From the NCBI RefSeq assembly GCF_013283665.1, contig NZ_JABEKU010000002.1, forward strand, positions 1,176,863-1,240,862: 64,000 nucleotides of DNA, in the 5' to 3' direction. Of the stretch, positions 11,236 through 35,454 are shown in pieces. Positions within the stretch are counted from its first letter, which is position 1, and each line of letters starts with the position of its first letter. The notes under the pieces were generated by a model. The model was not told the DNA's origin and searched no databases. It worked only from the letters and a program-made list of their open reading frames with translations. A program made the translations under genes and the position numbers. The stretch comes from Ensifer sesbaniae. GTDB lineage: Bacteria > Pseudomonadota > Alphaproteobacteria > Rhizobiales > Rhizobiaceae.

Positions 11236-11262
11236 TTCCGGTGGATACATTATGCGATCTTC
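11236..11262 (+). repeat. dif-like repeat, copy 1
   Basis: This is one of three copies in the window of a motif with invariant core GATACATTATGCG, preceded by TTCCRG plus two variable bases and followed a few bases later by TTC. The other copies are at 34438 and 35321, in the same orientation. Read on the minus strand the core is CGCATAATGTATC, which matches the XerC half and the spacer of the E. coli dif site (CGCATAATGTAT). The other half matches poorly. This copy lies between the homoserine operon and the IS110 remnant. Function as a recombination site is an inference. Confidence 0.7.
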
Positions 11263-11398
11263 TGTAACGGGCGTTGCGTCAATCCCTTGTGCGCTCAATC
11301 CCTCGCCGAGTGCTTGCTTCTGTTGGGGTGGACGGCCCCCAACGGCATCGAATGTGCCAGAGGGAGTCGTTGTGAACTCAAGCAAAGGGAGCCGTCCG

Positions 11399-12001
11399 TG
11401 GACAAATTATTCGTATTGGCATGGATACGTCAAAACATGTCTTTCAATTGCATGGCGTCAACGCTGCTGAGCAACCGATCCTGCGCAAGAAGTTGCGCCG
11501 TAAGGAAATGATGGGCTTTTTCACGGAATGCCCGCCGACTGTGATTGCGATCGAAGCCTGCGGTGCTTCGCATCACTGGGCCCGGTCGCTGACCGCGCTC
11601 GGGCATGAGGTCAGACTGATCCCCCGCAGCTCGTGAAGCCTTACGTCAAACGTGGCAAAAATGACGCAGCTGATGCGGAAGCACTATGCGAGGCGATGAG
11701 CCGCCTAACAATGCGGTTCGTTCCGATGAAATCGGCGGATCAGCAAGCCGTACTGATGCTAGTTGGCATGCGCGAGCGCGTTGTTTCCGCACAAACGCAG
11801 CTTTCCAATACGATTCGCGGCCATGCGGCTGAGTTTGGGCTGACCGCCGGTAAAGGCATGTCCCATATCCCGCTACTGCTTGAACGGATCCTGATTGACG
11901 AAACCATTCCAGCCCTGGCACGCGATCTATTTGCATCTCTCGCTGACGAATTTCACTCCCGAAGAAGGACATACGGTCTTACGGTGAAAAGCCCGGCCTG
12001 A
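11399..12001 (+). pseudogene. IS110/IS1111-type transposase remnant, frameshifted and truncated
   Basis: Two reading frames together encode the N-terminal part of an IS110-family (DEDD) transposase. The first has IRIGMDTSKHVFQLHGVNA and IEACGASHHWARSL. The second has VKPYVKRGKNDAADAEALCE. They are joined by a one-base loss in the C-run near 11621-11625: one more C would restore the expected LIPPQLVKPYVKRG. The similarity stops after about 200 of the usual 340 or so residues (near ADEFHS), so the C-terminal catalytic half is gone. The element is dead. It marks past insertion beside the dif-like repeat at the edge of the catabolic island. Confidence 0.85.
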
Positions 12002-12006
12002 TAAGC

Positions 12007-12369
12007 CTAGTTTGCTTCGTCGATACAGACCGAGCGGATGTCGCCATTGCTTAGCGTCGTCTTGCACCGCTGGTTCGACTTGCAGTTAGGGTCACCGTTA
12101 GCCGTCACGACACCGCCAACGCGCTCACATTCCTGAGCAGTCAGTTCAGCAGAGCCGACCGTGGTCAGTGGGCCGGTTGCTCTATCCTTAACCGATGGCG
12201 CTTTCACCAGCGGCTTCTTGGTCTCTGCCACCAGAACCAAATCCGATGGATTTGCAGCGGTGGGGCTGGTCCAGGACGGACTGCCTGTCATGTTGATAGG
12301 CGCTGCGTGGATCGTCGTTGCAAAGCCTATTGAGAATGCGGCAACGGAAAGGAAGCGAGCCCGAGACAT
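12007..12369 (-). CDS. Small secreted Cys-containing protein, unknown function
   Basis: The 120-residue protein begins with a Sec signal peptide (MSRARFLSVAAFSIGFATTIHA, probable cleavage after HAA). It has a low-complexity linker and a C-terminal module of about 45 residues with four cysteines: LTAQECERVGGVV, then NGDPNCKSNQRCKTT and SVCIDEAN. Similar short periplasmic proteins with this C-terminal pattern occur widely in rhizobia, with no assigned function known to me. Two disulfides are likely. The gene stands alone between an IS remnant and a 600-base gap, and its codon use looks like that of the neighbours. Confidence 0.65.
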   Translation of the reverse strand: MSRARFLSVAAFSIGFATTIHAAPINMTGSPSWTSPTAANPSDLVLVAETKKPLVKAPSVKDRATGPLTTVGSAELTAQECERVGGVVTANGDPNCKSNQRCKTTLSNGDIRSVCIDEAN

Positions 12370-12979
12370 TCTTTGCCCTCTACAACCGGTGGTGAAGCTG
12401 GGGTTATGATATTAGCAGCAAATAGGGCGGCGCGGAATGCACGTGTCGTTTGGCAGATCCGCCTTTACCCACCCGCCTCGCCGCTTTGTTTATGCTACTC
12501 AAGCGACGAGGCGGAGCCTTTCGAAGCGACGCTCGGGCGAGTCGGCAACGCATATAATGGCAACCTCCGAAGACGACCAGTTTGTCGTTTGCGCAACAAC
12601 CACTTTCACTATCCGGTGAGCTGACGGATCGCCTTCGGCCCCAATTGAGACGCTCGGATCAAGAATCCGTTCTTCTCGCTTCCCGGGCGTTCAGATCAAA
12701 GGCAACAACGCGATCTCTCCATCCGCTTGAGACGACTGGAAGCCGGCAACATGCCGCTCAGTCCGGATGTCTCCTATCCCTCGCCTTGAAGGGATTCGAA
12801 CCAGCTTCGATTATGGTTAATTAAGCGAATTCGTTAATTAACAAAAATGCCGTTTCGTTTATTAATGCCCGTCCTATTACTGCAATACAGAACACGTGAA
12901 CATTACGGCTCGATACCGCCCCGTTATCGTCAACAAGAGGGAACCGCCTTCCGCTCTGCCTGGAGAAGCTGCGCTGCAG
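12370..12979. other. Intergenic region with a hairpin and an AT-rich inverted repeat
   Basis: I see no convincing gene in these 610 bases. A 14-bp near-perfect hairpin (CCGCCTCGCCGCTT at 12473 with AAGCGACGAGGCGG at 12501, one mismatch) could end transcription. A second dyad pairs GTTAATTAA at 12816 with TTAATTAAC at 12834 around a CGAATTCG centre, in an unusually AT-rich patch. That dyad may be an operator or a scar of an inserted element. Confidence 0.5.
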
Positions 12980-13828
12980 TCAGCCGAGCGCGTGGCTTGC
13001 CAACCCGTAGAGGTTCGGTCCCGGTACCACGACTGCGCCGCCTTTGCCCGGACGAGACATTGCGAGCACTGTGTCGAAGACGGCCAAGCCGGATTGCGAG
13101 AGGAATGTTGCGAAAGCGCCGGCCTCGACCGGTGTGTCGAGCCGCAGAAATTGACCTTCGTGGGTAGCGACATGATGCCGTATCACGGCGATGGCATCCG
13201 CATCATTTTCTGCCACGACCGGGCCAATGACATGCCCCCTGCCGAAACGACGGCAAAGTGCGAAAGCGCACAGCCGACCGCCGCGAACCAAGCCGTAGCC
13301 TAGGGACTGTGTAAAGAGCTTGCCGATCAGCGTCGCCCTCGAGGCACCGAATCCGCCCGCATCCAGCTCGACGACCGCAGCGAGGTCCTCCCCTTCCAGT
13401 CGCCGAACCAACGGCTGATCCGTTGGAGTAACAAAGTCGGTCGACCGGCGGGCCATGCCCTGGCATTGGTATATGGTCCGTATGGGCTCAAAACCGAGCG
13501 AATGATAAAGACGGCGGGATGCCCTTGTCGCATTGAGCCTCAGATCTCGTCCTCGGCTATCCGAAAGCACGTGGTCCATTAGCCATCGCCCGGCGCCGTT
13601 TGTCTGCAGCCGCGGCGAAGTAATCACCATGCCTATGGTCGCGAAATCATCGCCGTGCGGAAACCACATGGCCGAACCTGTCAGCCTGCCGATTTCGTCA
13701 AGCGCTATATAGCCTCGGCCGACCTCGCGCAGGAACTGCAAGTCTTCGGAGCGAAGCGGCCACCCGACGGAAACCGACAGAGCATGCAGTTGCTCGAGAT
13801 CGGCGCTCTCAATCCCAGCTATGCGCAT
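12980..13828 (-). CDS. GNAT-type acetyltransferase with C-terminal GNAT-like domain
   Basis: The 282-residue protein has an N-terminal GNAT fold (FATIGMVITSPRLQTNGAGR is the acetyl-CoA binding motif A region, then RLYHSLGFEPIRTIYQCQGM) and a second C-terminal GNAT-like/DUF1248-type domain (SLGYGLVRGGRLCAFALCRR, RGHVIGPVVAENDADAI). It is a paralogue of the gene at 23323, which has the same architecture and length. That match supports the ATG at 13828 over a longer upstream start. The acceptor substrate is unknown. Bracketing the first half of a catabolic cluster with an M20 deacylase, it might acetylate a pathway amine. It is divergent from the M20 gene with a 289-base gap. Confidence 0.75.
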   Translation of the reverse strand: MRIAGIESADLEQLHALSVSVGWPLRSEDLQFLREVGRGYIALDEIGRLTGSAMWFPHGDDFATIGMVITSPRLQTNGAGRWLMDHVLSDSRGRDLRLNATRASRRLYHSLGFEPIRTIYQCQGMARRSTDFVTPTDQPLVRRLEGEDLAAVVELDAGGFGASRATLIGKLFTQSLGYGLVRGGRLCAFALCRRFGRGHVIGPVVAENDADAIAVIRHHVATHEGQFLRLDTPVEAGAFATFLSQSGLAVFDTVLAMSRPGKGGAVVVPGPNLYGLASHALG

Positions 13829-14117
13829 TTCGAAACTGTCAATGACTTTGGATTCGGATGTCGGTGTGTCCACCTCTTGCCTCCCGTCCTGCCGTCGCCC
13901 TGTCTCGTCCCGCACTCCAACCGGCACGCGGCCAAAACCTTTGTACGTTAGACTAGAACAGTACGCTCGATACAATTCACTTGAGAGGCCGCCTGACGCA
14001 ACACAATCCTCCAAATCCGACGCGCTTTCAGCATGTAAAGCCTGGCCAGGCTTTTACAGTACCAGGCATCGTCGACGACGCTGACCCCAGCGGAGATATG
14101 GATGCTGTGAGGACAAG

Positions 14118-15242
14118 ATGCAGGCAGTGGAAATACTCGAAAAACTCGTCGGCTTCCCCACCGTCGTCGGCACACCCAATGCTGACATCGTTGCCTGGAT
14201 TGGCGGCTATCTGCAAAGCCACGGCATTGCCGTCACGCTCCTTCCCGGCCCGGAGGGCGATCGGTCTAACCTGTTCGCCACGATCGGTCCGAAAGAGGTG
14301 CCGGGTTATATTCTGTCGGGTCACATGGACGTCGTTCCGGCGACCGAAAGCGGCTGGACGGGCGATCCCTTTCATCTGCGTCAGGAGTCGGACCGACTTT
14401 ATGGACGGGGCGCCACCGACATGAAGGGTTTCTTGGCCGCCGCCCTCGCCGCCGCGCCAAAGCTCGCCGAGATGCACCTGCGCCGGCCCATCCACTTTGC
14501 CTTCTCCTATGACGAGGAGGCCGGCTGCCGTGGAGTACCGCATATGATCGAACGCCTGCCGAAACTCTGCGAAAAACCCCTCGGCGCGCTCATCGGCGAG
14601 CCGAGCGGCATGCGGGCGATCCGGGCGCACAAGGGCAAGTCGGCAGCGAGGCTTTCGGTGAAGGGCCGTTCCGGGCACTCCTCGCGTCCGGACCAGGGGC
14701 TGAATGCCATCCATGCCATGGCGAAAGTGCTTACCTCTGCTGCCGGAGAAGCTGACCGGCTGACCCGCGGCCCGTTTGAAGACGTATTTGAGCCGCCTTA
14801 CTCTTCCCTCCAGATTGGCACTGTCCAAGGCGGCCAAGCAGTCAATATCATTCCGGAGACCTGCGAGGCGGAATTCGAGGCGCGTGCGATTTCCGGCGTC
14901 GATCCGGCGGACCTGCTAAGCCCTGTGCGAGGGACTGCAGAGAAACTCAGGGAACTTGGTTTCACAGTCGAATGGCAAGAGCTCAGCGCTTATCCAGCGC
15001 TCTTTCTCCCCGCCGATGCGCCGCTCGCAACGCTTCTGGAGGAACTGACCGACCTCGTGTCTCTCCCGGCTGTCAGTTACGGCACCGAAGCCGGGCTTTT
15101 CCAGCAGGCCGGCATCGACGCGATCATCTGCGGCCCCGGCGAGATTGACCGCGCCCACAAGCCGAACGAATACATCCTCACCGACGAACTCGCTGCCTGC
15201 CAGGCGATGATCGAGCGGCTCGGTGAGCGTTGTCGCGCCTGA
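14118..15242 (+). CDS. M20 family metallo-deacylase (ArgE-like acetylornithine deacetylase)
   Basis: The 374-residue protein is an M20/ArgE-DapE peptidase-fold enzyme. Metal and catalytic motifs are visible: [14 protein letters not shown], then [20 protein letters not shown], the catalytic Glu pair in [25 protein letters not shown], and the final metal His in [12 protein letters not shown]. The dimerisation domain is present ([16 protein letters not shown]). Such enzymes hydrolyse N-acyl bonds of amino acids. Being first in a catabolic operon, separate from arginine biosynthesis, it probably deacylates an imported N-acyl amino acid or amine. The next gene starts 23 bases downstream. Confidence 0.85.
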
Positions 15243-15264
15243 GGCATCAAGGCGGAGACGCGCA

Positions 15265-16188
15265 ATGACCTTCCTCTTCAATTCCGACGCAAAACGCGGT
15301 GCGATCTTCGCCAAAGCTTTTTCGCGTGAGCTTCCGGACGTTCCTTTCGCCACGGATGCGGCGGCGGTCGATCCAGATGCGGTGCGCTACCTGATCACCT
15401 GGACGGTTCCGGAAGATCTTTCGCGCTATCGCAACCTTGAAATCCTCTTTTCGATCGGCGCCGGCGTCGACCAGTTCCGCATCGAGGCCGTTCCGCCGCG
15501 TGTGAAGGTCGTGCGCATGGTTGAGGACGGCATCATCCGGATGATGCAGGAATATGTGACACTTGCCGTACTCGCGCTCCATCGCAATTTGCCGGCCTAT
15601 TTGGACCAGCAGCGCAGCCAACATTGGCAGGCCATTTCCCAGATTCAGGCGTCGGAACGCCGCATCGGCGTGCTCGGCCTCGGCATGCTCGGCACCGCGG
15701 TTCTCGAACGATTGAAGCCCTTCGGCTTTTCCCTATCCGGCTGGAGCCGCAGCGCGCACGAACTCGAGGGTGTCAGATGCCTGCACGGTGCTGACGGTCT
15801 CGACAATCTGTTGGCCGACACCGACATCCTCATCTGTCTCATTCCTCTAACCGACGAGACGCGCGGTTTCCTCGATGCCGAGCTCTTCGCCAAGCTCCCG
15901 GCCGGTGCGGCGCTCGTTCATGTCGGCCGCGGTCCGCAGCTCGATCATCAGGCACTTCTCGACGCACTCGACAGCGGCCATCTCTCCGGCGCCCTCATCG
16001 ACGTCACCGACCCCGAGCCGCTTCCGGCGGACCATGCCATCTGGCGCCATTCGAAGATTCTGCTGACGCCGCACATAGCGAGCGTGACTCAACCGGAAAC
16101 CGCCGCCAAGGCCGTGATCGAGAACATCAGACGCCACCGCTCGGGTCTCGATCCGGTCGGGCTCGTTGATCGCGGCCGCGGCTATTGA
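15265..16188 (+). CDS. D-2-hydroxyacid dehydrogenase (GhrA-type glyoxylate/hydroxypyruvate reductase)
   Basis: The 307-residue enzyme has the NAD(P)-binding motif [20 protein letters not shown], the arginine region [14 protein letters not shown] and the catalytic His in the [17 protein letters not shown] segment. These are characteristic of the GhrA branch of 2-hydroxyacid dehydrogenases. It reduces 2-keto acids such as glyoxylate or hydroxypyruvate, or oxidises the reverse. The ATG at 15265 is chosen; an upstream GTG overlapping the M20 gene would add 14 unconserved residues. In the operon it could recycle a keto acid released by transamination or oxidation. Confidence 0.85.
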
Positions 16189-16212
16189 ATTCCACCCCAG
16201 GAAAGGAAAGCC

Positions 16213-16569
16213 ATGTCACTCCTGAAGACCATCGATACCAACCCCTCCTTCGCGCCGCGGGAATCCCGTCCCCTTCCGGAGCGCCTCATCTCCGGCGACC
16301 CCTCTTTCAAGACATGGGCTCAGGATGTCGCCCGTGGCGAAATGATCCACACCGGAATCTGGGAGGCGACGCCCGGCGAGACGCGCTCGATCAAGGGCGA
16401 GACCTTCGAGTTCTGCCATATCCTTTCCGGCGTCATTGAACTCACGCCCGAAGGCGGCGAGCCGGTCACCTACACGGCCGGCGACAGCTTCGTCATGAAG
16501 CCGGGCTTCGTCGGTATCTGGAAGACGATCGAGACGGTGCGCAAGGTCTACGTGACCGTGATGGCTTGA
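16213..16569 (+). CDS. Cupin-domain protein (DUF861 type)
   Basis: The 118-residue single-domain cupin contains the first cupin motif region WEATPGETRSIKGETFEFCH with LSGVIELTP, and the second GDSFVMKPGFVGIWKTIETV. This matches the (S)-ureidoglycine aminohydrolase/EutQ-like DUF861 group. The beta-barrel could bind a small acid or metal, but the usual metal His set is poorly kept (one His in FCH), so catalysis is uncertain. Small cupins of this type often accompany FAD amine oxidases and aldehyde dehydrogenases in amine catabolic operons. RBS GGAAAGGAAAG precedes the ATG. Confidence 0.8.
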   Translation: MSLLKTIDTNPSFAPRESRPLPERLISGDPSFKTWAQDVARGEMIHTGIWEATPGETRSIKGETFEFCHILSGVIELTPEGGEPVTYTAGDSFVMKPGFVGIWKTIETVRKVYVTVMA

Positions 16570-16716
16570 GCGATCGGGCGGGGTTATCCGACCCCGCCAA
16601 ACAATACACTGCGCGGCGGCTGCAAAACGGTGTTTTCCGCCGCGCCACCTCCACCAACAAACCAAGCGACTACCTCAGTTTTGCTAGCTTCGACTGCAGT
16701 TATCCGAGGTATCCGC

Positions 16717-18180
16717 ATGGCACTGAGTTTCGACCCTGACACCGTCCACCTCCCTATCGGTCACTTCATCGGCGACCGGATGATCCCTGCCGACGGGGTC
16801 ATCGACATGCATCGTCCATCCGATGGCAAAGCCTATGCCAGCTGTCCGCTCGCGGATGTGGCACTCGTCGACCGCGCTGTCGAAACCGCCAAGAATGCGC
16901 TGAAGGCTAGCAACTGGGGCGGCGTGCGTCCACGCGAGCGGACAGTCGTGCTGCAGCGCTGGGCCGACCTGATCGAAAGGGAGGCGGAAACCCTCGCCAA
17001 GCTCGAGGCGCTTTCCTCGACGCGTCCCGTTGGTCACCTCGTCGCCGGCGATGTCGCTGTCAGCGCCGAGCAGATCCGGTTCTTTGCGGAGTTCGCCGAT
17101 AAGGAAGGAAGCGACCTCGTGCCGACCGACGACGGTAGTCTCGGCATGGTCATGACGGAGCCCTATGGCGTCGTTGCCGCCATCACCCCGTGGAATTTTC
17201 CCATTTCGATGGCCGCCTGGAAGCTCGGCCCCGCGCTTGCGGCCGGCAATGCCGTGGTACTGAAGCCGTCGGAATTGACGCCGTTTTCGACCGTCTATCT
17301 CGCCGAACTCGCGATCCGCTCCGGCCTGCCGGCTGGTCTCGTTAATATCGTGCTGGGCGACGGTCCGGTGACCGGCACTGCCCTCACCGGCCATCCAGAC
17401 ATCGCCAAGGTCAGCTTCACCGGCTCGACCGGCGCCGGTTCAGCCATCATGGCTAACATCGCCCGCACCGGGGTCAAACCCATGACGCTTGAACTTGGCG
17501 GAAAGAGTCCTCAACTCGTGTTCGCCGACGCGGACCTCGACAAGGCGGCCGCCGCGATCGCACAGAGCATCCTCTCCAATGCCGGCCAGGCCTGCGTCGC
17601 CGGCTCTCGCCTAATCGTCGAGGAGGGTGCTGCTGCGCCGCTCGCCGAGGCGATCGTCAGACGCATGAGAGCGGCGAAGGCGGGGCCGACCTGGCACGAG
17701 GCAACCGAATACTCGCCGATCATCTCGAAGCGCCAGTTGAACCGCATCCACGGCATCGTCGAGGCTGCCGTTGCAGCGGGCGGCGAATGCCTGTTCGGGG
17801 GCGCGCCAATGGATGCGCCCGGCTACTTCTATCAGCCGACGTTGATGGCCGTGCGCGACAGTTCCTCGCCAGCGATAACTGAAGAAATCTTCGGTCCGGT
17901 CCTGACCATGCAGACCTTTGCCGACGAAGAGGAGGCCGTGGCGCTCGCCGATCACCCGACCTACGGCCTGGCCGCCGGCCTTTTCACCCGTGACCTGTCG
18001 CGCGCCCTCCGGCTTACGCGGCGACTCCAGGCAGGCACCGTTTGGGTCAACCGGTACAGCCGCTCACGCGACCACATTCTGCCGACCGGCGGCTACAAGC
18101 GCTCCGGCATCGGCAAGGACCTCGGACGCGTAGCCTATCAAGCCAATCGCAAGAGCAAGAGCGTTCTCATCAACCTCTAG
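16717..18180 (+). CDS. NAD-dependent aldehyde dehydrogenase 1 (betaine/amino-aldehyde type)
   Basis: The 487-residue enzyme shows full ALDH motifs: ITPWNFPISMAAWKLGPALA, the cofactor loop KVSFTGSTGAGSAIM, the general base in LELGGKSPQLVFAD, and the catalytic Cys in NAGQACVAGSRLIV. The C-terminal end GYKRSGIGKDLGR is typical. It should oxidise an amino-aldehyde or similar product to the acid. The ATG at 16717 begins MALSFDPDTVHLPIGHFI, matching ALDH N-termini. The next gene follows after 9 bases. It is one of two ALDHs in the cluster, and the two are not close paralogues. Confidence 0.9.
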   Translation: MALSFDPDTVHLPIGHFIGDRMIPADGVIDMHRPSDGKAYASCPLADVALVDRAVETAKNALKASNWGGVRPRERTVVLQRWADLIEREAETLAKLEALSSTRPVGHLVAGDVAVSAEQIRFFAEFADKEGSDLVPTDDGSLGMVMTEPYGVVAAITPWNFPISMAAWKLGPALAAGNAVVLKPSELTPFSTVYLAELAIRSGLPAGLVNIVLGDGPVTGTALTGHPDIAKVSFTGSTGAGSAIMANIARTGVKPMTLELGGKSPQLVFADADLDKAAAAIAQSILSNAGQACVAGSRLIVEEGAAAPLAEAIVRRMRAAKAGPTWHEATEYSPIISKRQLNRIHGIVEAAVAAGGECLFGGAPMDAPGYFYQPTLMAVRDSSSPAITEEIFGPVLTMQTFADEEEAVALADHPTYGLAAGLFTRDLSRALRLTRRLQAGTVWVNRYSRSRDHILPTGGYKRSGIGKDLGRVAYQANRKSKSVLINL

Positions 18181-18189
18181 GAGCCTTCC

Positions 18190-19233: not shown

Positions 19234-19252
19234 TATTGAGAGGAGAGAAATA

Positions 19253-20707: not shown

Positions 20708-20995
20708 TGCAAGTGGCGCAAAAATGTGGGCTTTTGGGGCAACGACATGCTCAAACAAGTACCTACGGCGCGTCGCGTGAATTCGATTGAACGCGACGAG
20801 CTGTGGGTAGTCACGACGATCTTGGGTCGGATCGAACCAAAGCCGCAAACGTGATTGTTCCAGGAGTGGAGTGAATGCCTGCGAAAAGGCGCCGTGTTTC
20901 TTCATCCCGCTCTAAAGCGCGCGCGAGGCGCTTCAACTCTTTCGCAAAATCCGCTGCACACTTCAGGCAGCACACCAGGCGAGATCCTCCAAACA

Positions 20996-21032
20996 AAGAA
21001 GGGCGCGGGCCTGTCCGGTCCGCGCCCTTCTT
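20996..21032. terminator. Strong bidirectional hairpin between converging genes
   Basis: A perfect 13-bp stem pairs AAGAAGGGCGCGG with CCGCGCCCTTCTT around an 11-base loop. It lies between the end of the plus-strand ALDH operon and the end of the minus-strand FAD oxidoreductase gene, so it can terminate both. On the minus strand a short T-rich stretch follows. Confidence 0.8.
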
Positions 21033-21047
21033 CCTTACCTGAGCTGT

Positions 21048-22322: not shown

Positions 22323-22337
22323 GGCGGACTGCCCTTT

Positions 22338-24159: not shown

Positions 24160-24172
24160 TCCGGAGATCATT

Positions 24173-25549: not shown

Positions 25550-25792
25550 TGGACGACTGACGCGATATGTCGCGGAACCGCCATATTCGAAATTTTGTGC
25601 CGCGCTACGGCGCCCTTTCAGAGACTCCAGCGCGGCACAACTGCCAAACTCAAATCAAGGAAGCGGCCGGATCCCAGCATATGCGGCCTTTCCAGCAAGA
25701 GCGGGAGAGAACATCCCGCCGACGGGAACAGAATATTCTTCTTCATGAAGTCGGCGCTCCGACGTGGGACGCGAAAAAACTGGGGAATCGAT

Positions 25793-26506: not shown

Positions 26507-26575
26507 CCAGTTCACCGGATTGGGTCTAAGTCCGCGGAAGACGTGCAGCCCGTCAACAACGAAAAGGGGAATGAC

Positions 26576-28186: not shown

Positions 28187-28201
28187 TGAAGCGAACGGTC
28201 G

Positions 28202-28227
28202 GGGTTGCAGCCGCAGCGCTGCAGCCC
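28202..28227 (+). promoter_or_regulatory. Intercistronic hairpin between binding protein and permease genes
   Basis: GGGTTGCAGC pairs with GCTGCAGCCC (one G-T) around a 6-base loop, 16 bases after the binding-protein stop. Such stems between binding-protein and permease genes commonly protect the upstream mRNA or attenuate read-through, giving more binding protein than permease. Confidence 0.55.
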
Positions 28228-28271
28228 TGATCCTTTTGGTTTGAAATCTCGAATGCCGAAAGGGAACGCGT

Positions 28272-29222
28272 GTGAACAATCGTGTCCTATCGCTCGTGTT
28301 GAGCAGATTGCTCATCGCCTTGATCACGCTGGTGATCGTCTCCTTCGCCGTGTTCTTCGCCACGACGCTCTTGCCGGGAGACACAGCGACGATCCTGCTT
28401 GGACAGGCCGCCACGCCGGAGGCAGTCGAAGGCTTGCGCAAGGCCATGCATCTCGACGACCCGGCGATCTTCCGTTTCCTGCGCTGGATCGTTGGTTTGC
28501 TGCAGGGCGACCTTGGCACCTCCTATGCCAATGAGATGCCTGTCGCGGATCTGATCGGCGGGCGCTTCATCAACACGCTGCAACTCGCGGGCGTCACCGC
28601 GCTCTTTTCCGTGCCAATCGCGCTGACGCTCGGCATCACGGCGGCGATGCTACGTGGCTCGCTGTACGACCGCGCCGTCACCGTGCTGACGATAGGGGTC
28701 ATCTCCGTGCCGGAATTCATGATAGCGACCTCCGCGGTGTTGATCTTCGCCGTCTACCTGAAATGGCTGCCGGCGCTCTCCTTCGCGAACGAAGTCACGT
28801 CGCTGACAGAGCTCCTGCGCATCTATGCTATGCCGGTGATCACCCTTACCTTCGTCATCTCGGCACAAATGATCCGCATGACCCGGGCAGCGGTGATCGA
28901 GACGCTCAACACGCCCTATGTGGAGATGGCGTTGCTCAAGGGTGCCTCGCGGCCGCGCATCGTGTTTCGGCATGCGCTGCCGAACGCTCTGGGCCCGATT
29001 GTCAACGCGGTCGCGCTTTCGCTCTCATACCTGCTCGGCGGCGTCATCATTGTCGAGACGATCTTCAACTATCCAGGTATTGCCAAGCTGATGGTCGACG
29101 CCGTCGCCACTCGCGACCTGCCGCTGATCCAGAGTTGCGCGATGATCTTCTGCCTCGGCTATCTGCTCCTGATCACGGCCGCCGATATCATAGCCATCCT
29201 TTCCAATCCGAGGCTCCGATGA
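28272..29222 (+). CDS. Dipeptide-type ABC permease (DppB-like)
   Basis: The 316-residue inner-membrane protein starts with GTG (MNNRVLSLVLSRLLIALITL) and has six hydrophobic segments. It carries the DppB-family coupling loop near YVEMALLKGASRPRIVFRHA followed by LPNALGPIVNAVAL. It pairs with the next permease, whose start overlaps its stop by 4 bases. Together with the fused ATPase it forms the importer for the unidentified substrate. Confidence 0.9.
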   Translation: MNNRVLSLVLSRLLIALITLVIVSFAVFFATTLLPGDTATILLGQAATPEAVEGLRKAMHLDDPAIFRFLRWIVGLLQGDLGTSYANEMPVADLIGGRFINTLQLAGVTALFSVPIALTLGITAAMLRGSLYDRAVTVLTIGVISVPEFMIATSAVLIFAVYLKWLPALSFANEVTSLTELLRIYAMPVITLTFVISAQMIRMTRAAVIETLNTPYVEMALLKGASRPRIVFRHALPNALGPIVNAVALSLSYLLGGVIIVETIFNYPGIAKLMVDAVATRDLPLIQSCAMIFCLGYLLLITAADIIAILSNPRLR

Positions 29223-30082
29223 CAATGACCAATTCTGAGACCAAGGCTGACCGGATTTCAGGAACCCGGCTTGGCTATCGCTTCAACATCATCGGCATGG
29301 TCGGTCTCTCGGTCATCCTTTTTTGGGCGTTGATCGCGATCTTCGCGCCGCTGATCATCCCCTACCCCGTCGGCGAGATCGTCGACCTCGACTACTTCGG
29401 CCCGATGAGCCGCGACTTCTGGCTCGGCTCGGATTATCTCGGCCGCGACATGCTCTCGCGAATCCTGATGGGCGCCCGCTATACGGTCGGTATCTCGCTT
29501 GCGGCAGTTACGATCGCCTGCTTCAGCGGCGTGATGCTCGGCATGTTCGCAGCGGTCGCCGGCGGCTGGCTCGACACGGTCCTGAGCCGCTTCCTCGACG
29601 CCCTCAACTCGATCCCGAGCAAGCTGTTCGGCCTTGTGGTCGTCGCTGCCGTCGGCTCCTCCATTCCCGTACTAATCCTGACGCTGTCGGTGATCTATAT
29701 CCCCGGCGCGTACCGTTTCGCCCGCGCGCTTGCCGTCAACATCAACGCGATGGATTTCATCACCGTCGCCCGCATCCGTGGCGAAAGCACGCTCTATCTC
29801 ATCCGCTCGGAAATCCTGCCGAACATCGTCGGACCAGTACTTGCCGACCTTGGCATCCGCTTCGTCTTCATCGTTCTCCTGCTCTCCGGCCTCTCCTTCC
29901 TCGGCCTCGGCGTCCAGCCGCCTTACGCAGACTGGGGGGCTCTCGTGCGTGAGAATATCGGCGGCCTGCCCTTTGGTGCACCGGCGGTGATGGCTCCCTC
30001 CTTTGCGATCGCCAGCCTCACCATCAGCGTCAACCTGCTGATCGACAACCTGCCCAAGAAGATCCGCGATCGGAGCGAATGA
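29219..30082 (+). CDS. Dipeptide-type ABC permease (DppC-like)
   Basis: The 287-residue permease begins MTMTNSETKADRISG and has the DppC hallmarks: an N-terminal transmembrane segment, the periplasmic region FGPMSRDFWLGSDYLGRDML (the DxxGRD motif of the family), and the coupling loop DFITVARIRGESTLYLIRSE with ILPNIVGPVL. The start at 29219 gives an ATGA overlap with the upstream stop; a longer frame upstream overlaps the previous gene out of frame and is not used. Its stop overlaps the start of the ATPase gene. Confidence 0.9.
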   Translation: MTMTNSETKADRISGTRLGYRFNIIGMVGLSVILFWALIAIFAPLIIPYPVGEIVDLDYFGPMSRDFWLGSDYLGRDMLSRILMGARYTVGISLAAVTIACFSGVMLGMFAAVAGGWLDTVLSRFLDALNSIPSKLFGLVVVAAVGSSIPVLILTLSVIYIPGAYRFARALAVNINAMDFITVARIRGESTLYLIRSEILPNIVGPVLADLGIRFVFIVLLLSGLSFLGLGVQPPYADWGALVRENIGGLPFGAPAVMAPSFAIASLTISVNLLIDNLPKKIRDRSE

Positions 30083-31737
30083 TGGTAAATCTCGTAGAAA
30101 TCCGCGACCTGAAGGTCGAAGCCACCACCGATTCCGGCCGCCGCGTCGAGATCATCAACGGCGTCAGCTTCGACATCGCTGAGGGCGAGATCGTGGCGCT
30201 GATCGGCGAAAGCGGCTCCGGCAAGACGACGATCGCACTCACGCTGATGGGCCATGCCCGTCCCGGCTGTCGCATCTCCGGCGGCAGCGTCTCAGTCGCC
30301 GGAAAGGATATGGTGACGCTGAGCGAAAAGCAGCGCGCCAGGGTACGCGGCACCGAGGTCACCTATGTTCCGCAATCAGCCGCCGCCGCATTCAACCCGG
30401 CCACCACAATCATGGACCAGGTGATCGAGGTCACCCGCATCCATGGGATTATGTCGTCCGACGAGGCGCGCGCCCGCGCAGTGGATCTCTTCCGAGCGCT
30501 GTCGCTACCAGAGCCCGAAACGATTGGTAGGCGCTATCCGCACCAGGTCTCCGGCGGCCAGTTGCAGCGGCTTTCAGCGGCGATGGCACTGATCGGGGAC
30601 CCGAAGCTCGTCATCTTCGACGAGCCAACGACGGCGCTCGACGTGACGACGCAGATCGAGGTGCTGCGCGCCTTCAAGTCGGTCATGAAGAAAGGCGGCA
30701 TCGCCGGCGTTTACGTCTCGCACGACCTCGCCGTGGTCGCCCAGATCGCCGATCGGATCGTCGTCTTGAAAGGCGGCGAGACCAAGGAGATCGGCACGAC
30801 CGAAGAGATCCTCAATGGCGCGAAGCACCCGTACACGCGGGAGCTGCTCGCCGCCTTCGAGCCGAAACCCCGTGGCGCTGCGGGCGCGGCCGAGAGTGGT
30901 CCGGCCCCGTTGCTCGAAATCGAAAATCTCATCGCAGGCTACGGCCAGGTTCAGGCCGACGGCCTGCCGCTCGTGCGCGCGGTCGAGCATGTCAGTCTCA
31001 AGGTGGAGAAGGGGCGCAACCTCGGTATCATCGGCGAGTCCGGTTGCGGCAAGTCGACGCTCGCTCGCACCATCGCCGGCATATTGCCGGCCGCTGTCGG
31101 CAAGATCGTTTTCGACGGCAAGGAACTCGGTCGCAGCGCCCGCGAGCGCTCGCGCGATGAACTACGCGAAATGCAGATCGTCTTCCAATATGCCGATACG
31201 GCGCTTAATCCGGCGAAATCCGTCGAGGACATCTTAGCCCGGCCACTTACCTTCTATCACGGGATGAATGCCAAGGCGCGTAGCGCACGCATCGATGAGC
31301 TGCTCGACATGGTGCGTCTGCCGCGCAACCTGCGTCATCGCCGCCCGGGCGAGCTTTCCGGCGGCCAGAAGCAGCGCGTCAACTTCGCCCGCGCGCTTGC
31401 CGCCGACCCGAAGCTGATCCTTTGCGACGAAATCACCTCGGCGCTCGATACGGTGGTCGCCGCCGCCGTCATCGATCTCCTCAAGGAATTGCAGCGCGAG
31501 CTCGGTCTTTCCTACATCTTCATCAGCCATGACCTCTCCGTGGTGGAGTCGATCTGCGACGAGATCGTCGTGATGTATGGCGGCAGAAAGGTAGAGGAAA
31601 TCTCGCCGGCGAAGATCAAGACACCTGAGCATCCCTATTCGCAGTTGCTCTTCTCGTCGGTGCCGAGGCTCGATCCCACGTGGCTCGATGGGCTCGAACA
31701 GGATCCGGAGCTCGTGCGAGCCTATCGCCAGCGCTGA
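30079..31737 (+). CDS. Fused double ATP-binding protein of the dipeptide-type importer (DppD-DppF)
   Basis: The 552-residue protein contains two complete ABC ATPase domains. The first has Walker A GESGSGKTT, signature VSGGQLQRLSAAMAL and Walker B LVIFDEPTTALD. The second has GESGCGKST, LSGGQKQRVNFARAL and LILCDEITSALD. It replaces separate DppD and DppF subunits with one chain. It starts 4 bases inside the permease gene, so four transport genes are tightly coupled. The second Walker B has Ile in place of Pro (DEITSALD), but the catalytic Glu is kept. Confidence 0.92.
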   Translation: MMVNLVEIRDLKVEATTDSGRRVEIINGVSFDIAEGEIVALIGESGSGKTTIALTLMGHARPGCRISGGSVSVAGKDMVTLSEKQRARVRGTEVTYVPQSAAAAFNPATTIMDQVIEVTRIHGIMSSDEARARAVDLFRALSLPEPETIGRRYPHQVSGGQLQRLSAAMALIGDPKLVIFDEPTTALDVTTQIEVLRAFKSVMKKGGIAGVYVSHDLAVVAQIADRIVVLKGGETKEIGTTEEILNGAKHPYTRELLAAFEPKPRGAAGAAESGPAPLLEIENLIAGYGQVQADGLPLVRAVEHVSLKVEKGRNLGIIGESGCGKSTLARTIAGILPAAVGKIVFDGKELGRSARERSRDELREMQIVFQYADTALNPAKSVEDILARPLTFYHGMNAKARSARIDELLDMVRLPRNLRHRRPGELSGGQKQRVNFARALAADPKLILCDEITSALDTVVAAAVIDLLKELQRELGLSYIFISHDLSVVESICDEIVVMYGGRKVEEISPAKIKTPEHPYSQLLFSSVPRLDPTWLDGLEQDPELVRAYRQR

Positions 31738-31896
31738 GGCGCCGGCTCATTCCAACCTGCTGGCCATCGCCTCAGTCCGAAGAAGGACCGAAGGAGACGC
31801 GGACGAAACATCATACCTTGTCAGGTGCGGCTCCGGAGGAGCGGGCCAGATCGCAGGCGCCCGCTGCGCAAGCCGGCGCAAGCCGATCCGAAGATT

Positions 31897-32373
31897 CTAC
31901 ATCCGAAACAGGCTGGTCAGTGGCATGTGCACCTTGACGATCGGCGACTTCAAGACGACGAAACTAAAATACTTGTCGATGCCGACGTCCATGTCGGTGA
32001 GGCGCTCCATGATCGTCTGGTATTCGCCGATCCCGGCCGTGACGAATTTCAGGAGATAGTCGTAGCCGCCGGACACCAGATGGCATTCGATCACTTGGTC
32101 GACCTTCTCTATCGCCGCAAGGAAGCGGGCGAAGTCGATCTGCCGGTGGTTCTTCAGCGTGATCTCGGTGAAGACCGTAAGGGTTTGCCCGAGCTTGCTG
32201 ACGTTGATCTGCGCTGAGTAGCCCTCGATATAGCCCTCCGACTGCAGCTTCTTGACCCGCATGAGGCATGGGCTCGGGGAAAGATTGACGAGCTCTGCAA
32301 GCTCCACATTGGTGATGCGGCCATTCTTCTGCAGTTCGTACAGAATCTTGATGTCGATCCGGTCGAGTTTCAT
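31897..32373 (-). CDS. Lrp/AsnC family regulator of the amine catabolic cluster
   Basis: The 158-residue protein has the winged HTH (MKLDRIDIKILYELQKNGRI, VELAELVNLSPSPCLMRVKK) and the AsnC ligand-binding domain (VIECHLVSGGYDYLLKFVTA). The PSPCLMRVKKL recognition helix is typical of the Lrp/BkdR group. It is divergent from an FAD oxidoreductase and converges on the ABC importer operon, so it is the obvious local regulator. The ATG at 32373 gives the family length; longer frames upstream reach into the promoter gap. Confidence 0.92.
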   Translation of the reverse strand: MKLDRIDIKILYELQKNGRITNVELAELVNLSPSPCLMRVKKLQSEGYIEGYSAQINVSKLGQTLTVFTEITLKNHRQIDFARFLAAIEKVDQVIECHLVSGGYDYLLKFVTAGIGEYQTIMERLTDMDVGIDKYFSFVVLKSPIVKVHMPLTSLFRM

Positions 32374-32608
32374 GGCGGGCCTTTCCCCTTGCTGAAGTGG
32401 CCAACGGCGCAGCAGATTGTGCTGCGATTTTCCCGACGATGACCTTAACACATTGGAGAGGCGTGTCGATTTGGTTTGGGACAGTGGGCCAAAGCAGAAA
32501 GGGCGGCATTGCTCCTGCAAGACGGCATCTTCTGCTGCGCTTCGGCCATACTCCGGCAACGCCTTCGCGCCCAAGCCGCTAGACTGCGCTCGAAACGGAG
32601 GTCCCGCC

Positions 32609-33934
32609 ATGCCCGCACCACTGAAACTCGTCGACACAACTCCGCAGTTGCCCGATGCCGCCGATGCCGTGGTAATCGGCGGCGGCATTGTCGGCGTGTT
32701 CGCGGCCTATTACCTTGCCCGCCGCGGATTGAACGTCGCCCTCGTCGAGAAGGGACGGATCGGCGCGGAACAGTCGAGTCGCAACTGGGGCTGGTGCCGC
32801 CAGCAGAACCGGGACGCCCGTGAATTGCCGATGGCGACGAAGAGCCTCGATCTTTGGGAGCGTTTCGCCGCCGAGAGCGGCGAGGTCACCGGTTTCCGCC
32901 GCTGTGGGCTGCTCTACCTCAGCAATAGCGAAGAGGAACTGGCCGGCTGGGCACGCTGGCGCGATTTCGCCCGGACCGTCGGCGTCACCACCCATATGCT
33001 CGACAGCGCCCAGGCGACCGAGCGCGGCCGCGCAACCGGCAAGCCATGGAAGGGCGGCGTCTTTTCGCCGAGCGACGGCACCGCCGATCCGGCAAGCGCG
33101 GCACCCGCGGTCGCGCGTGCGATCCTCAAACTTGGCGGCACCGTGCACCAGTCCTGCGCCGCCCGCGGCATCGAGACAGAAGGCGGTCGCCTATCCGGTG
33201 TCGTCACCGAGCATGGCACCATCCGCACGAAAACGGCCGTCCTCGCCGGCGGCGCCTGGGCCTCCTCCTTCTGCCGCCAGCTCGATATCCGCTTTCCCCA
33301 AGCGTCTGTCCGCTCATCGATTCTCGCCGTCTCGCCGGGCGCCATCGGCCTTCCGGATGCGCTGCATACGGCCGCTGTTTCGGTGACGCGCCGCGCCGAC
33401 GGCGGCTATACACTCGCCATCAGCGGCCGCGGCCGCGTCGACCCGACGCCACAGCAATTGCGCTTCGCGCCGCAGTTTCTGCCGATGTTTGCCCGGCGCT
33501 GGCGCAGCCTTGCACGCGGCGGCCTTGAAGGTTTGCGCTCCGGTCACGAGAGCCTCACCCGTTGGCGCATCGATGCTCCGACGCCAATGGAGCGTATGCG
33601 CATCCTTGATCCCGCAGTCGACAAGGCCACCATTCGCCTCACTCACTCACGCGCGGTCGAGCTGTTGCCTGACCTGAAGAACACCAGCATCGCCGCCGCA
33701 TGGGCCGGCTACATTGACAGCACGCCCGACGGTGTGCCGTGCATCGGCGAAATCGCCACCATACCAGGCTTCATCCTGGCCGCCGGCTTCAGTGGGCACG
33801 GCTTCGGCATTGGTCCTGGCGCCGGTCACCTGATCGCCGACATCGTCACCGGTGACGAGCCAATCGTCGACCCCCGCGCGTACCATCCGGACCGCTTCCG
33901 AAAATCCGTCTGGGGTAAGGTCGCCGATTTCTAG
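32609..33934 (+). CDS. FAD-dependent oxidoreductase (DAO family, DadA-like)
   Basis: The 441-residue enzyme has the FAD motif DAVVIGGGIVGVFAAYYLAR, the second glycine-rich segment EKGRIGAEQSSRNWGWCRQQ, and the C-terminal LAAGFSGHGFGIGPGAGHLI. This is a typical DAO fold that oxidises amino acids or secondary amines. The WGWCRQQNRD block after the second motif matches an uncharacterised branch common in rhizobia. Divergent from the Lrp gene, it is probably controlled by it. It is the second FAD amine oxidase of the cluster and not a close copy of the one at 21 kb. Confidence 0.85.
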   Translation: MPAPLKLVDTTPQLPDAADAVVIGGGIVGVFAAYYLARRGLNVALVEKGRIGAEQSSRNWGWCRQQNRDARELPMATKSLDLWERFAAESGEVTGFRRCGLLYLSNSEEELAGWARWRDFARTVGVTTHMLDSAQATERGRATGKPWKGGVFSPSDGTADPASAAPAVARAILKLGGTVHQSCAARGIETEGGRLSGVVTEHGTIRTKTAVLAGGAWASSFCRQLDIRFPQASVRSSILAVSPGAIGLPDALHTAAVSVTRRADGGYTLAISGRGRVDPTPQQLRFAPQFLPMFARRWRSLARGGLEGLRSGHESLTRWRIDAPTPMERMRILDPAVDKATIRLTHSRAVELLPDLKNTSIAAAWAGYIDSTPDGVPCIGEIATIPGFILAAGFSGHGFGIGPGAGHLIADIVTGDEPIVDPRAYHPDRFRKSVWGKVADF

Positions 33935-34437
33935 TCACCTGAATCCATAGTTCGGTCATTGTTTTTTGGCAGAATCGTTTGACGGCGGCGAGGATGCTGA
34001 GCGTCGATCAAGCGAGGACCAGTCCACCGGAAGGAAGCCGTAGCGGGACGTCATCCCTCGTCGACGAAATGCAGATCAGAGCTTGCAAGTTCAAACCCGC
34101 CTTGACGGCATGCCATAAAGCAGTTCCGCCGGCGCTGAAACCAATCCCGAGGCACGAAGGGCTCTCTTCACGACGGCTCTGGACGGCCCGCTCTAAACCA
34201 TCACCCTTAAAAAGATGGTTGTGAAGCTCCTCTCCGCTCAGATCCGGCCGTCCACTTACGTCAGCTAGTGCAGATTTCGGTGTTCGAAGCGAACAAGCGG
34301 TTCAAATACGTTTGGACAACCACGAATGAATGTCTCCACCACCAACCAAATCTCGTATCCGGGACATTAATCAAACCTGGCTTCATCAGAGTGGCAGCTT
34401 TGCACCGCTAGAGTGCTTGCGATACCTAAGATGGCCA
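33935..34437. other. Intergenic region, no gene recognised
   Basis: I see no convincing coding region, hairpin or repeat in these 503 bases apart from the dif-like repeat that begins at its right end. Base composition is less GC-rich than in the catabolic cluster. Confidence 0.4.
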
Positions 34438-34464
34438 TTCCAGTCGATACATTATGCGTTCTTC
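34438..34464 (+). repeat. dif-like repeat, copy 2
   Basis: The core GATACATTATGCG (34446-34458) is preceded by TTCCAGTC and followed by a TTC. It has the same orientation as the copies at 11236 and 35321. It flanks the left side of the toxin-antitoxin module. See copy 1 for the comparison with dif. Confidence 0.75.
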
Positions 34465-34528
34465 GGGCGGGTGAACCACTGCGGCCCGTTGGCCTTCGCT
34501 GATAACCAGACCAACAGCCGGTCTACCC

Positions 34529-34819
34529 TCAGAAGCCAGCTTCTTTCTGATGCCGCACGGCGAGGATTGTCACAACGTCGTCGTCAATGCGGTACCGTGT
34601 AATGTATCCGCTATCTCCAAAATCGATGAGCCACTCTCGATACTGATCCGGCAAATCATCAATGAGGCGCCCCAATTTTGGATGTACGCCAAGGGCTTGC
34701 ACACCTGTCAGAATGGCTTCAGCCGCGCGCTTTGCTGCCAACGGGCTTTTCGGTTGCAAGAATTTTCGGAGGCGCTCAAGATCACGAACCGCTGCCTGAG
34801 AGAAGACTATTTGTGGCAT
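34529..34819 (-). CDS. ParE/RelE-family toxin
   Basis: The 96-residue protein fits the ParE toxin family: IVFSQAAVRDLERLRKFL at the N-terminus, the central PKLGRLIDDLPDQYREW, and the C-terminal beta strand TRYRIDDDVVTILAVRHQKE. ParE toxins poison DNA gyrase, while RelE relatives cut mRNA; the sequence does not settle which, but GRxxxxLPxxYRE with a terminal AVRHQKE favours ParE. Its start lies within the end of the antitoxin gene (13-base overlap), the standard antitoxin-first order. The pair sits between dif-like repeats 2 and 3. Confidence 0.88.
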   Translation of the reverse strand: MPQIVFSQAAVRDLERLRKFLQPKSPLAAKRAAEAILTGVQALGVHPKLGRLIDDLPDQYREWLIDFGDSGYITRYRIDDDVVTILAVRHQKEAGF

Positions 34820-35085
34820 TCAGGCGCAGCACTCTCGTCGTCAGCTCCCCACGTGGATAGCCAGTTTTCGACCTCAGCCGCAGTGGCATGGAGGCCGGTC
34901 GATTGATACTCCTCCCACGCCGCCAGCGTGTCCTGTCGCAATGCTTCTCGCTTCTCTTCTCGCTCGACGTATTGCGCAATCGCTTCTCGCATGATCCAGT
35001 GAGACGACCGGCGACGGATTTCAGCCAAGTGTTGAACGCGGCCCTTCAACTCATCATCGAGCTTGAGCGAAGTCGGGGATGCCAT
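34807..35085 (-). CDS. CopG/RHH-type antitoxin of the ParE pair
   Basis: The 92-residue protein starts with a ribbon-helix-helix module (MASPTSLKLDDELKGRVQHL, RRRSSHWIMREAIAQYVE). This is followed by an acidic, charged tail that should wrap the toxin (VENWLSTWGADDESAAPECH). RHH antitoxins neutralise the toxin and repress their own promoter. The upstream DNA has short dyads (AGCGCT and GGTATTACC) that could be the operator. It is encoded first, overlapping the toxin gene. Confidence 0.88.
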   Translation of the reverse strand: MASPTSLKLDDELKGRVQHLAEIRRRSSHWIMREAIAQYVEREEKREALRQDTLAAWEEYQSTGLHATAAEVENWLSTWGADDESAAPECHK

Positions 35086-35150
35086 AGCAGCCGTCCTTAG
35101 TTTAAGGTAATACCAAGCGCTAAATATAAGTGCTGCGGTTTCACTTGTCT

Positions 35151-35273
35151 ATGATCCAGCATCTCGTTTCCTACCTGTCGCAGTACACGTCGCTGCAGCC
35201 GGGCGACATCATCTCGACCGGCAAGCCGCCCGGCGTCGGCACCCAGAAGCAGTTCGCACGCGCGGACGACTGA
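35151..35273 (+). pseudogene. Fragment of a fumarylacetoacetate hydrolase-family gene
   Basis: A 40-codon open stretch encodes MIQHLVSYLSQYTSLQPGDI followed by ISTGKPPGVG, which is the conserved core near the C-terminus of FAH-family hydrolases (usually QPGDIISTGTPPGVG). Nothing of the rest of the roughly 280-residue protein is present. It is a gene remnant trapped between the toxin-antitoxin pair and dif-like copy 3. Confidence 0.75.
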
Positions 35274-35320
35274 TCTTACGTCGAGGAGAACGACCGCTAA
35301 CGGAAATCCCACGCCGTCGT

Positions 35321-35347
35321 TTCCAGACGATACATTATGCGACTTTC
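35321..35347 (+). repeat. dif-like repeat, copy 3
   Basis: TTCCAGAC precedes the core GATACATTATGCG (35329-35341), with ACTTTCG after it. It is in direct orientation with copies 1 and 2, 883 bases from copy 2. It marks the right end of the toxin-antitoxin module and the start of the decayed DUF433 gene region. Confidence 0.75.
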
Positions 35348-35454
35348 GACGCACAAAACAGGAACAGCACGCCCGTCCTCAATACTGACACTTTAGGGAG
35401 GTTCGGAACTCCTCGATCGCGAATTATATATTCCGCCACATCGGAAGATTTAAT

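What the first reader, a model, noticed from the sequence alone, without database searches (positions are those of the whole stretch)
11236..35347. Three direct copies of a dif-like 21-27 bp repeat in 24 kb
Seen: GATACATTATGCG, with TTCCRG plus two bases before it and TTC a few bases after it, occurs at 11236, 34438 and 35321, all in the same orientation and nowhere else that I found. Read on the other strand, CGCATAATGTAT equals the XerC half and spacer of E. coli dif; the other half is weak. Known: Xer-type sites on Acinetobacter plasmids (pdif) flank mobile modules. Inference: these could be Xer or related tyrosine-recombinase sites that move modules in rhizobial replicons. I know of no description of this in rhizobia.
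Basis: partly seen in the sequence, partly recalled or inferred. Interest (0 to 1): 0.78.

Follow-up and report, generated by a model that had tools for sequence, protein, structure and literature searches.

The report
Xer-like module junctions on rhizobial megaplasmids
A short sequence repeated along large plasmids of Sinorhizobium looks like an altered copy of the bacterium's own chromosome-separation (dif) site, and blocks of genes have been swapped, gained or lost exactly at it, so these plasmids appear to be built partly from exchangeable modules.

Summary
The repeat is real: three same-strand copies in the window, 12 exact copies in the genome, and copies in 15 of 16 genomes of the genus. 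Read on the other strand it is GATCGCATAA-TGTATC-GACnGGAA: the XerC arm of rhizobial dif (one base off this host's GATCACATAA), a 6-bp centre, and the outer half (GGAA) of the dif XerD arm TTATGGAAC, with inner TTAT replaced. A pattern leaving centre and inner arm free found 17 true dif sites and 94 dispersed sites, 77 of them with one and the same centre.

The sites are recombination junctions. Of 121 sites, 27 pairs share the upstream flank, 116 the downstream flank, none both (thresholds given). In S. meliloti megaplasmids, 50.1-kb and 2.75-kb segments are present or absent exactly between sites; in the first case the remaining site is a hybrid, the exchange lying in the centre plus one base.

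Sites are polar: XerC-to-XerD reads away from the origin in 62 of 66 placed sites, along with KOPS. Unlike pdif modules the sites are direct repeats. Catalysis by XerC/XerD is inferred. My literature searches showed no earlier description.

The parts
11236..11259 (+). Site 1 (TTCCGGTGGATACATTATGCGATC): altered XerD arm 11236-11243, centre GATACA 11244-11249, XerC arm TTATGCGATC 11250-11259
   Evidence: upstream flank 96.1% to S. chiapasense S24 pA up to the last base of the site, downstream flank 95.8% to Ensifer sp. PDNC004 from the first base of the site
34438..34461 (+). Site 2 (TTCCAGTCGATACATTATGCGTTC), left edge of the toxin-antitoxin module
   Evidence: the E. adhaerens relative of the module also follows a site (2 mismatches) but has a different upstream flank
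35321..35344 (+). Site 3 (TTCCAGACGATACATTATGCGACT), right edge of the module
34462..35320 (+). 859-bp module between two direct sites
   Evidence: homology to E. adhaerens covers window 34470-35160
34529..34819 (-). ParE/RelE-family toxin gene, 96 aa
   Evidence: PF05016 E=2e-17
34807..35085 (-). Ribbon-helix-helix antitoxin gene, 92 aa
   Evidence: PF01402 E=8.5e-12
35351..35366 (+). Downstream box GCACAAAACAGGAACA on the XerC side of site 3 (consensus roughly GCMCARAACGNGAACA at +22..+37)
   Evidence: sequence; conservation over the 121-site set
11260..11323 (+). Downstream sequence of type A on the XerC side of site 1, 92% like that beside the C5 site
11320..11953 (+). IS110-family element or remnant next to site 1
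   Evidence: blastn to annotated IS110 transposases

Best explanation
The repeat is a dif-derived, Xer-type core recombination site. It keeps the XerC arm of rhizobial dif, a nearly fixed 6-bp crossover sequence (TGTATC/GATACA) and the outer half of the XerD arm, but the inner XerD half is replaced. Circular segments carrying one such site integrate into a resident site, or segments between two direct sites excise, by exchange in the shared centre. Repeated events build co-directional strings of modules (toxin-antitoxin pairs, catabolic blocks, IS) on large plasmids. The shared centre differs from the dif centres seen (in one dif by a single base), which should keep these exchanges apart from the replicon's own dif. 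Shown: the dif-like anatomy, junctions at the site, a hybrid site in a natural deletion/insertion pair, and polarity. Inferred: that host XerC with XerD (or a related plasmid recombinase) catalyses it, probably XerC-first because its arm is intact, and that the altered XerD arm together with the orientation (FtsK meets the XerC side first) limits FtsK-driven excision.
For: Dif of this genome: GATCACATAAGATAGATTATGGAAC (C1) and GATCACATAATATACATTATGGAAC (C2); dif-type sites with up to 2 mismatches in 16 of 16 genomes. In a search leaving centre and inner arm free, 17 dif and 94 dispersed of 111 hits, reversed control 0. 121 sites: 27 pairs share upstream, 116 share downstream, 0 both at the thresholds used. 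S. meliloti: 50.1 kb between sites 211334 and 261483 of RCAM1750 is absent in ml56, whose site is a hybrid, exchange between positions 7 and 15 of the 24-mer; 2.75-kb RelBE segment present/absent between RCAM1750 and ml28; further half-swapped junctions; 20 of 104 synteny breakpoint clusters within 30 bp of a site where about 0.5% of the sequence lies. The parent sites of the 50-kb event share at most 9 consecutive bases, those of the 2.75-kb event 11. Window site 1 joins two flanks of different origin. Orientation 62 of 66; KOPS 116 against 17. A XerD-family protein over the family cut-off lies on C3.
Against: No recombinase action, binding or excision circle was observed. The inner XerD half is not conserved, so XerD action is unproven. 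The genome encodes many other tyrosine recombinases on C2 and C4 that could act instead. Most breakpoint clusters (84 of 104) are not at a site. Part of the shared-flank signal comes from IS that target the site and from short repeated D families; three pairs show some homology on the other side below or beyond the thresholds. The direction of each event (gain or loss) is unknown. At window site 1 homology to S. chiapasense resumes about 800 bp on, so a local insertion or replacement fits as well as a module exchange. The E. adhaerens relative of the window toxin-antitoxin pair has a site on one side only, with up to 5 mismatches allowed. Four of 66 placed sites have the other orientation.
Confidence: 0.8

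Rival explanations
1. Same kind of site and same module exchange, but the enzyme is a plasmid-borne tyrosine recombinase that borrowed a dif-like site, not XerC/XerD. (This overlaps with the best explanation, which leaves the enzyme open.)
For: Many XerD-like tyrosine recombinases on C2 (for example 1307214, three in a row at 1085-3824) and C4; the inner XerD arm is replaced by a loosely conserved GACn; in this genome the sites are on C2, C4 and C5 and not on C1 or C3.
Against: The XerC arm is that of the host's dif but for one base, and identical to that of several relatives. Genes beside the sites were not surveyed for a common recombinase.
Confidence: 0.25
2. The sites are passive hotspots: insertion sequences that hunt dif-like sites put different DNA beside them, and ordinary homologous recombination does the rest.
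For: An IS30-like end lies exactly 14 bp after GATC at 10 of 121 sites; an IS1595-like end abuts or nearly abuts the other side at 5 of 121 (one ORF of each kind tested); IS110 elements lie in type-A flanks. IS1202-family IS are known dif hunters (PMC10132070, passages and sections 18-19).
Against: The 50.1-kb and 2.75-kb events change whole segments between two sites, the first leaving a hybrid site; the parent sites share runs of only 9 and 11 bases and the flanks seen at the junctions are not alike.
Confidence: 0.12
3. The repeat is an orientation-dependent replication or segregation signal (KOPS-like or fork barrier), and its presence at breakpoints is secondary.
For: Polarity relative to repC and dif: 62 of 66; same sense as KOPS, 116 to 17.
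Against: It does not explain the dif anatomy, the nearly fixed centre, the hybrid site or the non-shared flanks; one genome of the genus, G001, has no exact copy.
Confidence: 0.05
4. The repeat is the end of one transposon or a promoter element.
For: Conservation starts sharply at TTCC, and several downstream families are shared over 40 to 1500 bp.
Against: Several unlike downstream families, and 27 pairs that share the upstream flank but not the downstream one; no Rfam match at the sites in the window and four loci.
Confidence: 0.03

Closest known systems
Acinetobacter pdif sites and dif modules
   Same: dif-like sites on plasmids that delimit exchangeable modules; toxin-antitoxin modules such as higAB and abkAB appear in a table of PMC10132070 (passage); IS hunt the sites
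   Different: [quoted passage not shown] the inner XerD arm is altered, the 6-bp centre nearly fixed, and polarity follows the replichore
IMEX attachment sites with a divergent XerD side (GGI difGGI, TLC phage attP)
   Same: XerC arm conserved, XerD arm divergent (PMC5357621, passages)
   Different: In GGI and TLC the centre is like that of the host dif and integration is at dif; here the centre differs from the dif centres seen and many copies lie on one replicon; no viral contig matched
cer/psi plasmid resolution sites
   Same: Xer core with conserved sequence next to the XerC arm (cer/psi layout recalled)
   Different: Many sites per replicon: 26 to 33 pattern hits, a few of them dif-like or chance, on each of seven S. 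meliloti megaplasmid records
Rhizobial replicon dif
   Same: XerC arm, 6-bp spacing and outer XerD half (A. tumefaciens dif in PMC2731167, passage)
   Different: None of the 121 sites chosen for a GATACA-like core has the inner ATAA/TTAT
Integron cassette arrays
   Same: Co-directional strings of modules
   Different: The core is dif-like; attC folding and an integron integrase were not sought

Membership tests
Xer/dif-type core site | XerC-binding arm matching the host dif | tested here: met
   GATCGCATAA against GATCACATAA in this genome (9 of 10) and GATCGCATAA in several relatives' dif
Xer/dif-type core site | 6-bp centre between the arms | tested here: met
   TTCC-N4-N6-TTATGYGATC holds both classes in one register
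Xer/dif-type core site | Complete XerD arm including inner TTAT | tested here: not met
   0 of 121 sites chosen for a GATACA-like core have it; outer TTCC/GGAA kept. It is therefore called dif-derived, not a dif site
Xer/dif-type core site | Recombination by XerC/XerD | not testable with these tools
   Needs mutants or purified proteins
pdif module system | Segments with precise site-to-site presence/absence | tested here: met
   Two such segments between S. meliloti strains
pdif module system | Pairs of inversely oriented sites flanking each module | tested here: not met
   72 co-directional and 4 inverted adjacent pairs
IMEX attachment site | Conserved XerC arm, divergent XerD arm | tested here: met
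IMEX attachment site | Centre like the host dif, integration at dif | tested here: not met
   Centre GATACA in 77 of 94 dispersed sites; the 17 dif centres differ from it, one (GATACC) by a single base
cer/psi-type resolution site | Accessory sequence next to the XerC arm | tested here: inconclusive
   A box at +22..+37 is found with a loose motif in 58 of 120 sites against 2-5 of 119-120 in five control stretches; no protein is known to bind it
IS terminus | One constant flank inside the element | tested here: not met
   Both flanks vary

The most novel reading that the evidence does not exclude
Sinorhizobium megaplasmids carry a replicon-wide, polar network of FtsK-silent Xer sites with one private crossover sequence: an altered XerD arm and an orientation in which FtsK arrives from the XerC side keep modules stable, while XerC-first exchange among these sites, insulated from dif, makes the symbiotic and accessory replicons modular by design.
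Probability: 0.35. Interest if true: 0.87.

Novelty: new variant of a known kind. Interest (0 to 1): 0.74.

Why it matters
It would give a concrete mechanism for the mosaic structure of rhizobial symbiotic plasmids (that they are mosaic is recalled), with a 24-bp handle by which many module borders could be read off a Sinorhizobium genome. It extends Xer-driven module exchange from Acinetobacter plasmids to megaplasmids of nitrogen-fixing bacteria, with 26 to 33 pattern hits on each of seven S. meliloti records. The replichore polarity, shared with KOPS, poses a directly testable question: does the direction in which FtsK meets a Xer site decide whether it recombines?

Tried and rejected
IS terminus or promoter: rejected because both flanks vary; no RNA family matched at the sites tested. 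A tie to the DUF433/DUF5615 genes downstream of site 3: rejected, since four relatives of that gene pair have no site within 6 kb by the scan used. Classical E. coli-type dif in this genome: no match with <=3 mismatches; the rhizobial consensus came from a table in PMC10132070. In one search the dif pattern with up to 2 mismatches had 4 hits and 1 control hit, so only the two 1-mismatch hits are taken as dif. Chance: the reversed control had 0 hits. Toxin-antitoxin enrichment of modules: only looked at; 133 ORFs, overlapping frames included, from 14 chosen modules of 3.02 kb or less (of 21 modules up to 5.2 kb) matched 35 Pfam families, the 25 shown holding PIN, ParE, RHH, Phd/YefM, MazE and FitA-like among metabolic and other ones; no control set was run, so no enrichment is claimed. 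Viral contigs: no exact match.

Rows dropped: for the orientation count 66 of 140 known sites (121 plus 19 further hits, counted by hand) lie on the 14 contigs used; contigs without a repC hit and G003:C4 (two repC, two dif-like sites) were left out. The repC of G000:C4 is truncated, and G007:C4 has two repC hits, of which one was used. Discordant sites: G005:C14 576212 and 669913, G008:C2 154060, G000:C4 40781. In the ml56 list of 26 hits I leave out two with unrelated centres; the other 24 (21 minus, 3 plus) fit an origin at the repC near base 156 if dif lies between 615 kb and 1.5 Mb, which was not located in that record. The reversed KOPS control is also skewed (74 to 37), so part of the KOPS signal is strand composition. 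Of the 94 dispersed hits, one (G006:C1, centre CTTCAC) is probably chance but is counted.
Full report
Observation. The motif GATACATTATGCG is present at 11244, 34446 and 35329 of the window, all on the + strand, inside a 24-bp unit that begins with TTCC at 11236, 34438 and 35321. In the whole genome (G000, 6.9 Mb, 5 contigs; the window is C2:1176863-1240862) there are 12 exact copies: eight + and two - on C2, one on C4, one on C5. Sixteen places match TTCCRGTCGATACATTATGCGATC with up to 3 mismatches, none on C1 or C3.

Distribution. GATACATTATGCGATC is found in 15 of 16 genomes of the genus. In 199 genomes drawn from the family, 5 had the pattern, in 3 of 109 genera; two of the hits in other genera lie on contigs numbered C1, which may be chromosomes. 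Viral contigs had none. A 201-bp query around one site matched 185 plasmid records, all Sinorhizobium, Rhizobium or Ensifer.

Anatomy. The dif sites of this genome are GATCACATAAGATAGATTATGGAAC (C1:1977854) and GATCACATAATATACATTATGGAAC (C2:220713), the latter roughly opposite the repC of C2 at 1534834. All 16 genomes have such sites with up to 2 mismatches, several with GATCGCATAA. Read on the same strand the repeat is GATCGCATAA TGTATC GACnGGAA: a dif XerC arm, a 6-bp centre, the outer XerD half GGAA kept, the inner TTAT lost. To avoid finding only what I asked for, I searched TTCC-N10-TTATGYGATC: 111 hits in 16 genomes, 0 for the reversed control. They fall in 17 with inner ATAA (true dif; eight different centres, TCTATC in 9) and 94 without it, whose centre is GATACA in 77 and within 2 bases of it in 93. 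One dif, GATACC, is one base off GATACA; the other 16 dif centres differ from it by 3 to 5 bases. A nearly fixed centre in one class and varied centres in the other is what sites that must exchange with each other, but not with dif, should show (inference).

XerC-side flank. Little is conserved beyond TTCC on the XerD side in 47 aligned sites. On the XerC side a second block, about GCMCARAACGNGAACA at +22..+37, is moderately conserved; a loose form is found in 58 of 120 sites against 2-5 of 119-120 in five control stretches. Several longer downstream families exist. This resembles the layout of cer/psi, where accessory sequences lie on the XerC side (recalled).

Junction test between species. 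For 121 non-identical sites in the window and 95 fetched loci, 1.5-kb flanks were compared all against all. With at least 100 bp of homology reaching within 60 bp of the site, 27 pairs share the upstream flank, 116 the downstream flank, and 0 share both. Short of those thresholds, one upstream-sharing pair has a 78-bp downstream match, and two downstream-sharing pairs have upstream homology that starts some 400-600 bp from the site. Some of the shared flanks are IS or short repeated families, so these are not counts of events.

Junction test within a species. In S. meliloti megaplasmids the blocks RCAM1750 200445-211357 / ml56 142778-153687 and RCAM1750 261480-275115 / ml56 153661-167297 are 99.9% identical and meet inside one site in ml56, whereas 50.1 kb (sites 211334 to 261483) lie between them in RCAM1750. 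The ml56 site has position 7 of one RCAM1750 site and position 15 of the other, so the exchange lies in positions 8-14, the centre plus one base. The two parent sites share at most 9 consecutive bases. The segment carries transport, LysR-type regulator and oxidoreductase genes. A 2.75-kb segment with RelB/RelE genes lies between sites 250130 and 252884 of RCAM1750 and is absent from ml28, where the outer flanks meet at one site. Sequence related to this segment lies elsewhere on the ml28 and ml56 plasmids. Other sites show one flank kept and the other replaced. Over three plasmid stretches of 320, 380 and 320 kb, 20 of 104 breakpoint clusters are within 30 bp of a site, where about 0.5% of the sequence lies; the comparisons are not independent and 84 clusters lie elsewhere.

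The window. Site 1 joins an upstream flank shared (96.1%) with S. chiapasense S24 up to the last base of the site, and a downstream flank shared (95.8%) with Ensifer sp. PDNC004 from its first base; S. chiapasense has another sequence right after its site. Some homology to S. chiapasense resumes about 800 bp later, so here an insertion with local replacement is as good a reading as a module exchange. Sites 2 and 3 enclose 859 bp with a ParE-type toxin and a ribbon-helix-helix antitoxin. The E. adhaerens relative (89%) follows a site with 2 mismatches and has another upstream flank; no second site was found in the 5.7 kb fetched.

Polarity. Adjacent sites are co-directional in 72 of 76 cases. 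On 14 contigs with a repC, 62 of 66 sites read XerC to XerD away from repC. On the four contigs where dif and length were used, all 37 sites fit a switch at dif; on G006:C3 the sense changes between 533 and 589 kb, dif is at 547 kb, and the half-way point from repC is near 314 kb. KOPS (GGGNAGGG) around the sites run in the same sense, 116 against 17, in 36 contigs against 3 with 3 ties; a reversed control is skewed less, 74 against 37. PMC13342612 (passages) reports that across most of the large replicons it studied, a panel with S. meliloti pSymA and pSymB, KOPS polarity switches at dif. FtsK coming from the origin would therefore meet the XerC arm first. I recall, but did not see, work that FtsK activation is asymmetric with respect to the XerD side; PMC2680272 (passages) does not settle this. 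Review passages on GGI state that FtsK failed to activate XerCD at difGGI in vitro and that the complex is dissociated (PMC5357621), which is the model for the stability idea.

Mechanism. Best reading: Xer-type exchange among sites with a private centre, probably XerC-first, giving integration of circles into resident sites and excision between direct sites; successive integration keeps orientation and so yields polar strings. The recombinase is not shown. A XerD-family protein over cut-off is on C3 and a second full-length match below cut-off on C1, but other tyrosine recombinases are on C2 and C4.

Novelty. Searches for the 13-mer, for pdif with Rhizobium and XerC, for dif site/XerC/chromosome dimer with Sinorhizobium, for dif modules with Rhizobiaceae, for dif/XerCD/megaplasmid, for Sinorhizobium with dif-like, for IMEX with XerCD, and for pSymA with site-specific recombination gave no description among the titles and abstract starts listed (two searches listed 15 of 26 papers each). 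The nearest is PMC10132070 (passages and sections 18-19), which found single dif-like sites beside rhizobial IS of the IS1202 family and suggested a different local dif consensus. I rate this a new variant of a known kind.

Noticed in passing
L088, L090, L091, L094 (two), L117, L125, L138, L146, L150: An IS30-like end (GGTACATTC) lies exactly 14 bp after the XerC arm at 10 of 121 sites; one ORF, in L125, was tested and has HTH_38. Possibly another IS group that hunts Xer-like sites.
   Followed up: partly
L091, L102, L107, L139, L134: An IS1595-like end abuts the XerD side of the site in four cases and lies about 10 bp away in a fifth; the transposase family was tested in L102 only.
   Followed up: partly
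window 35410-36400: Sequence 80-92% identical to DUF433 + DUF5615 (PIN-like) genes of other rhizobial plasmids; the one ORF tested there had no Pfam hit, so the genes may be decayed.
   Followed up: partly
G000:C2 1085-3824 and 2347058: Three tyrosine-recombinase genes in a row at the start of C2, next to a dif-like site (2 mismatches) at the other end of the contig if C2 is circular; looks like a recombinase-in-trio element (recalled).
   Followed up: no
W02:C1 351660 and W03:C1 293879: Sites with a one-base insertion (GATACATTAATGCGATC) share the downstream flank of an intact RCAM1750 site but not the upstream one.
   Followed up: partly
G001: The one genome of the genus set with no exact site; it has a single variant (centre AATACG) at C3:129559.
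   Followed up: no
L011 9666-9765: Group II intron match (RF00029, 50.2 bits) on C4.
   Followed up: no
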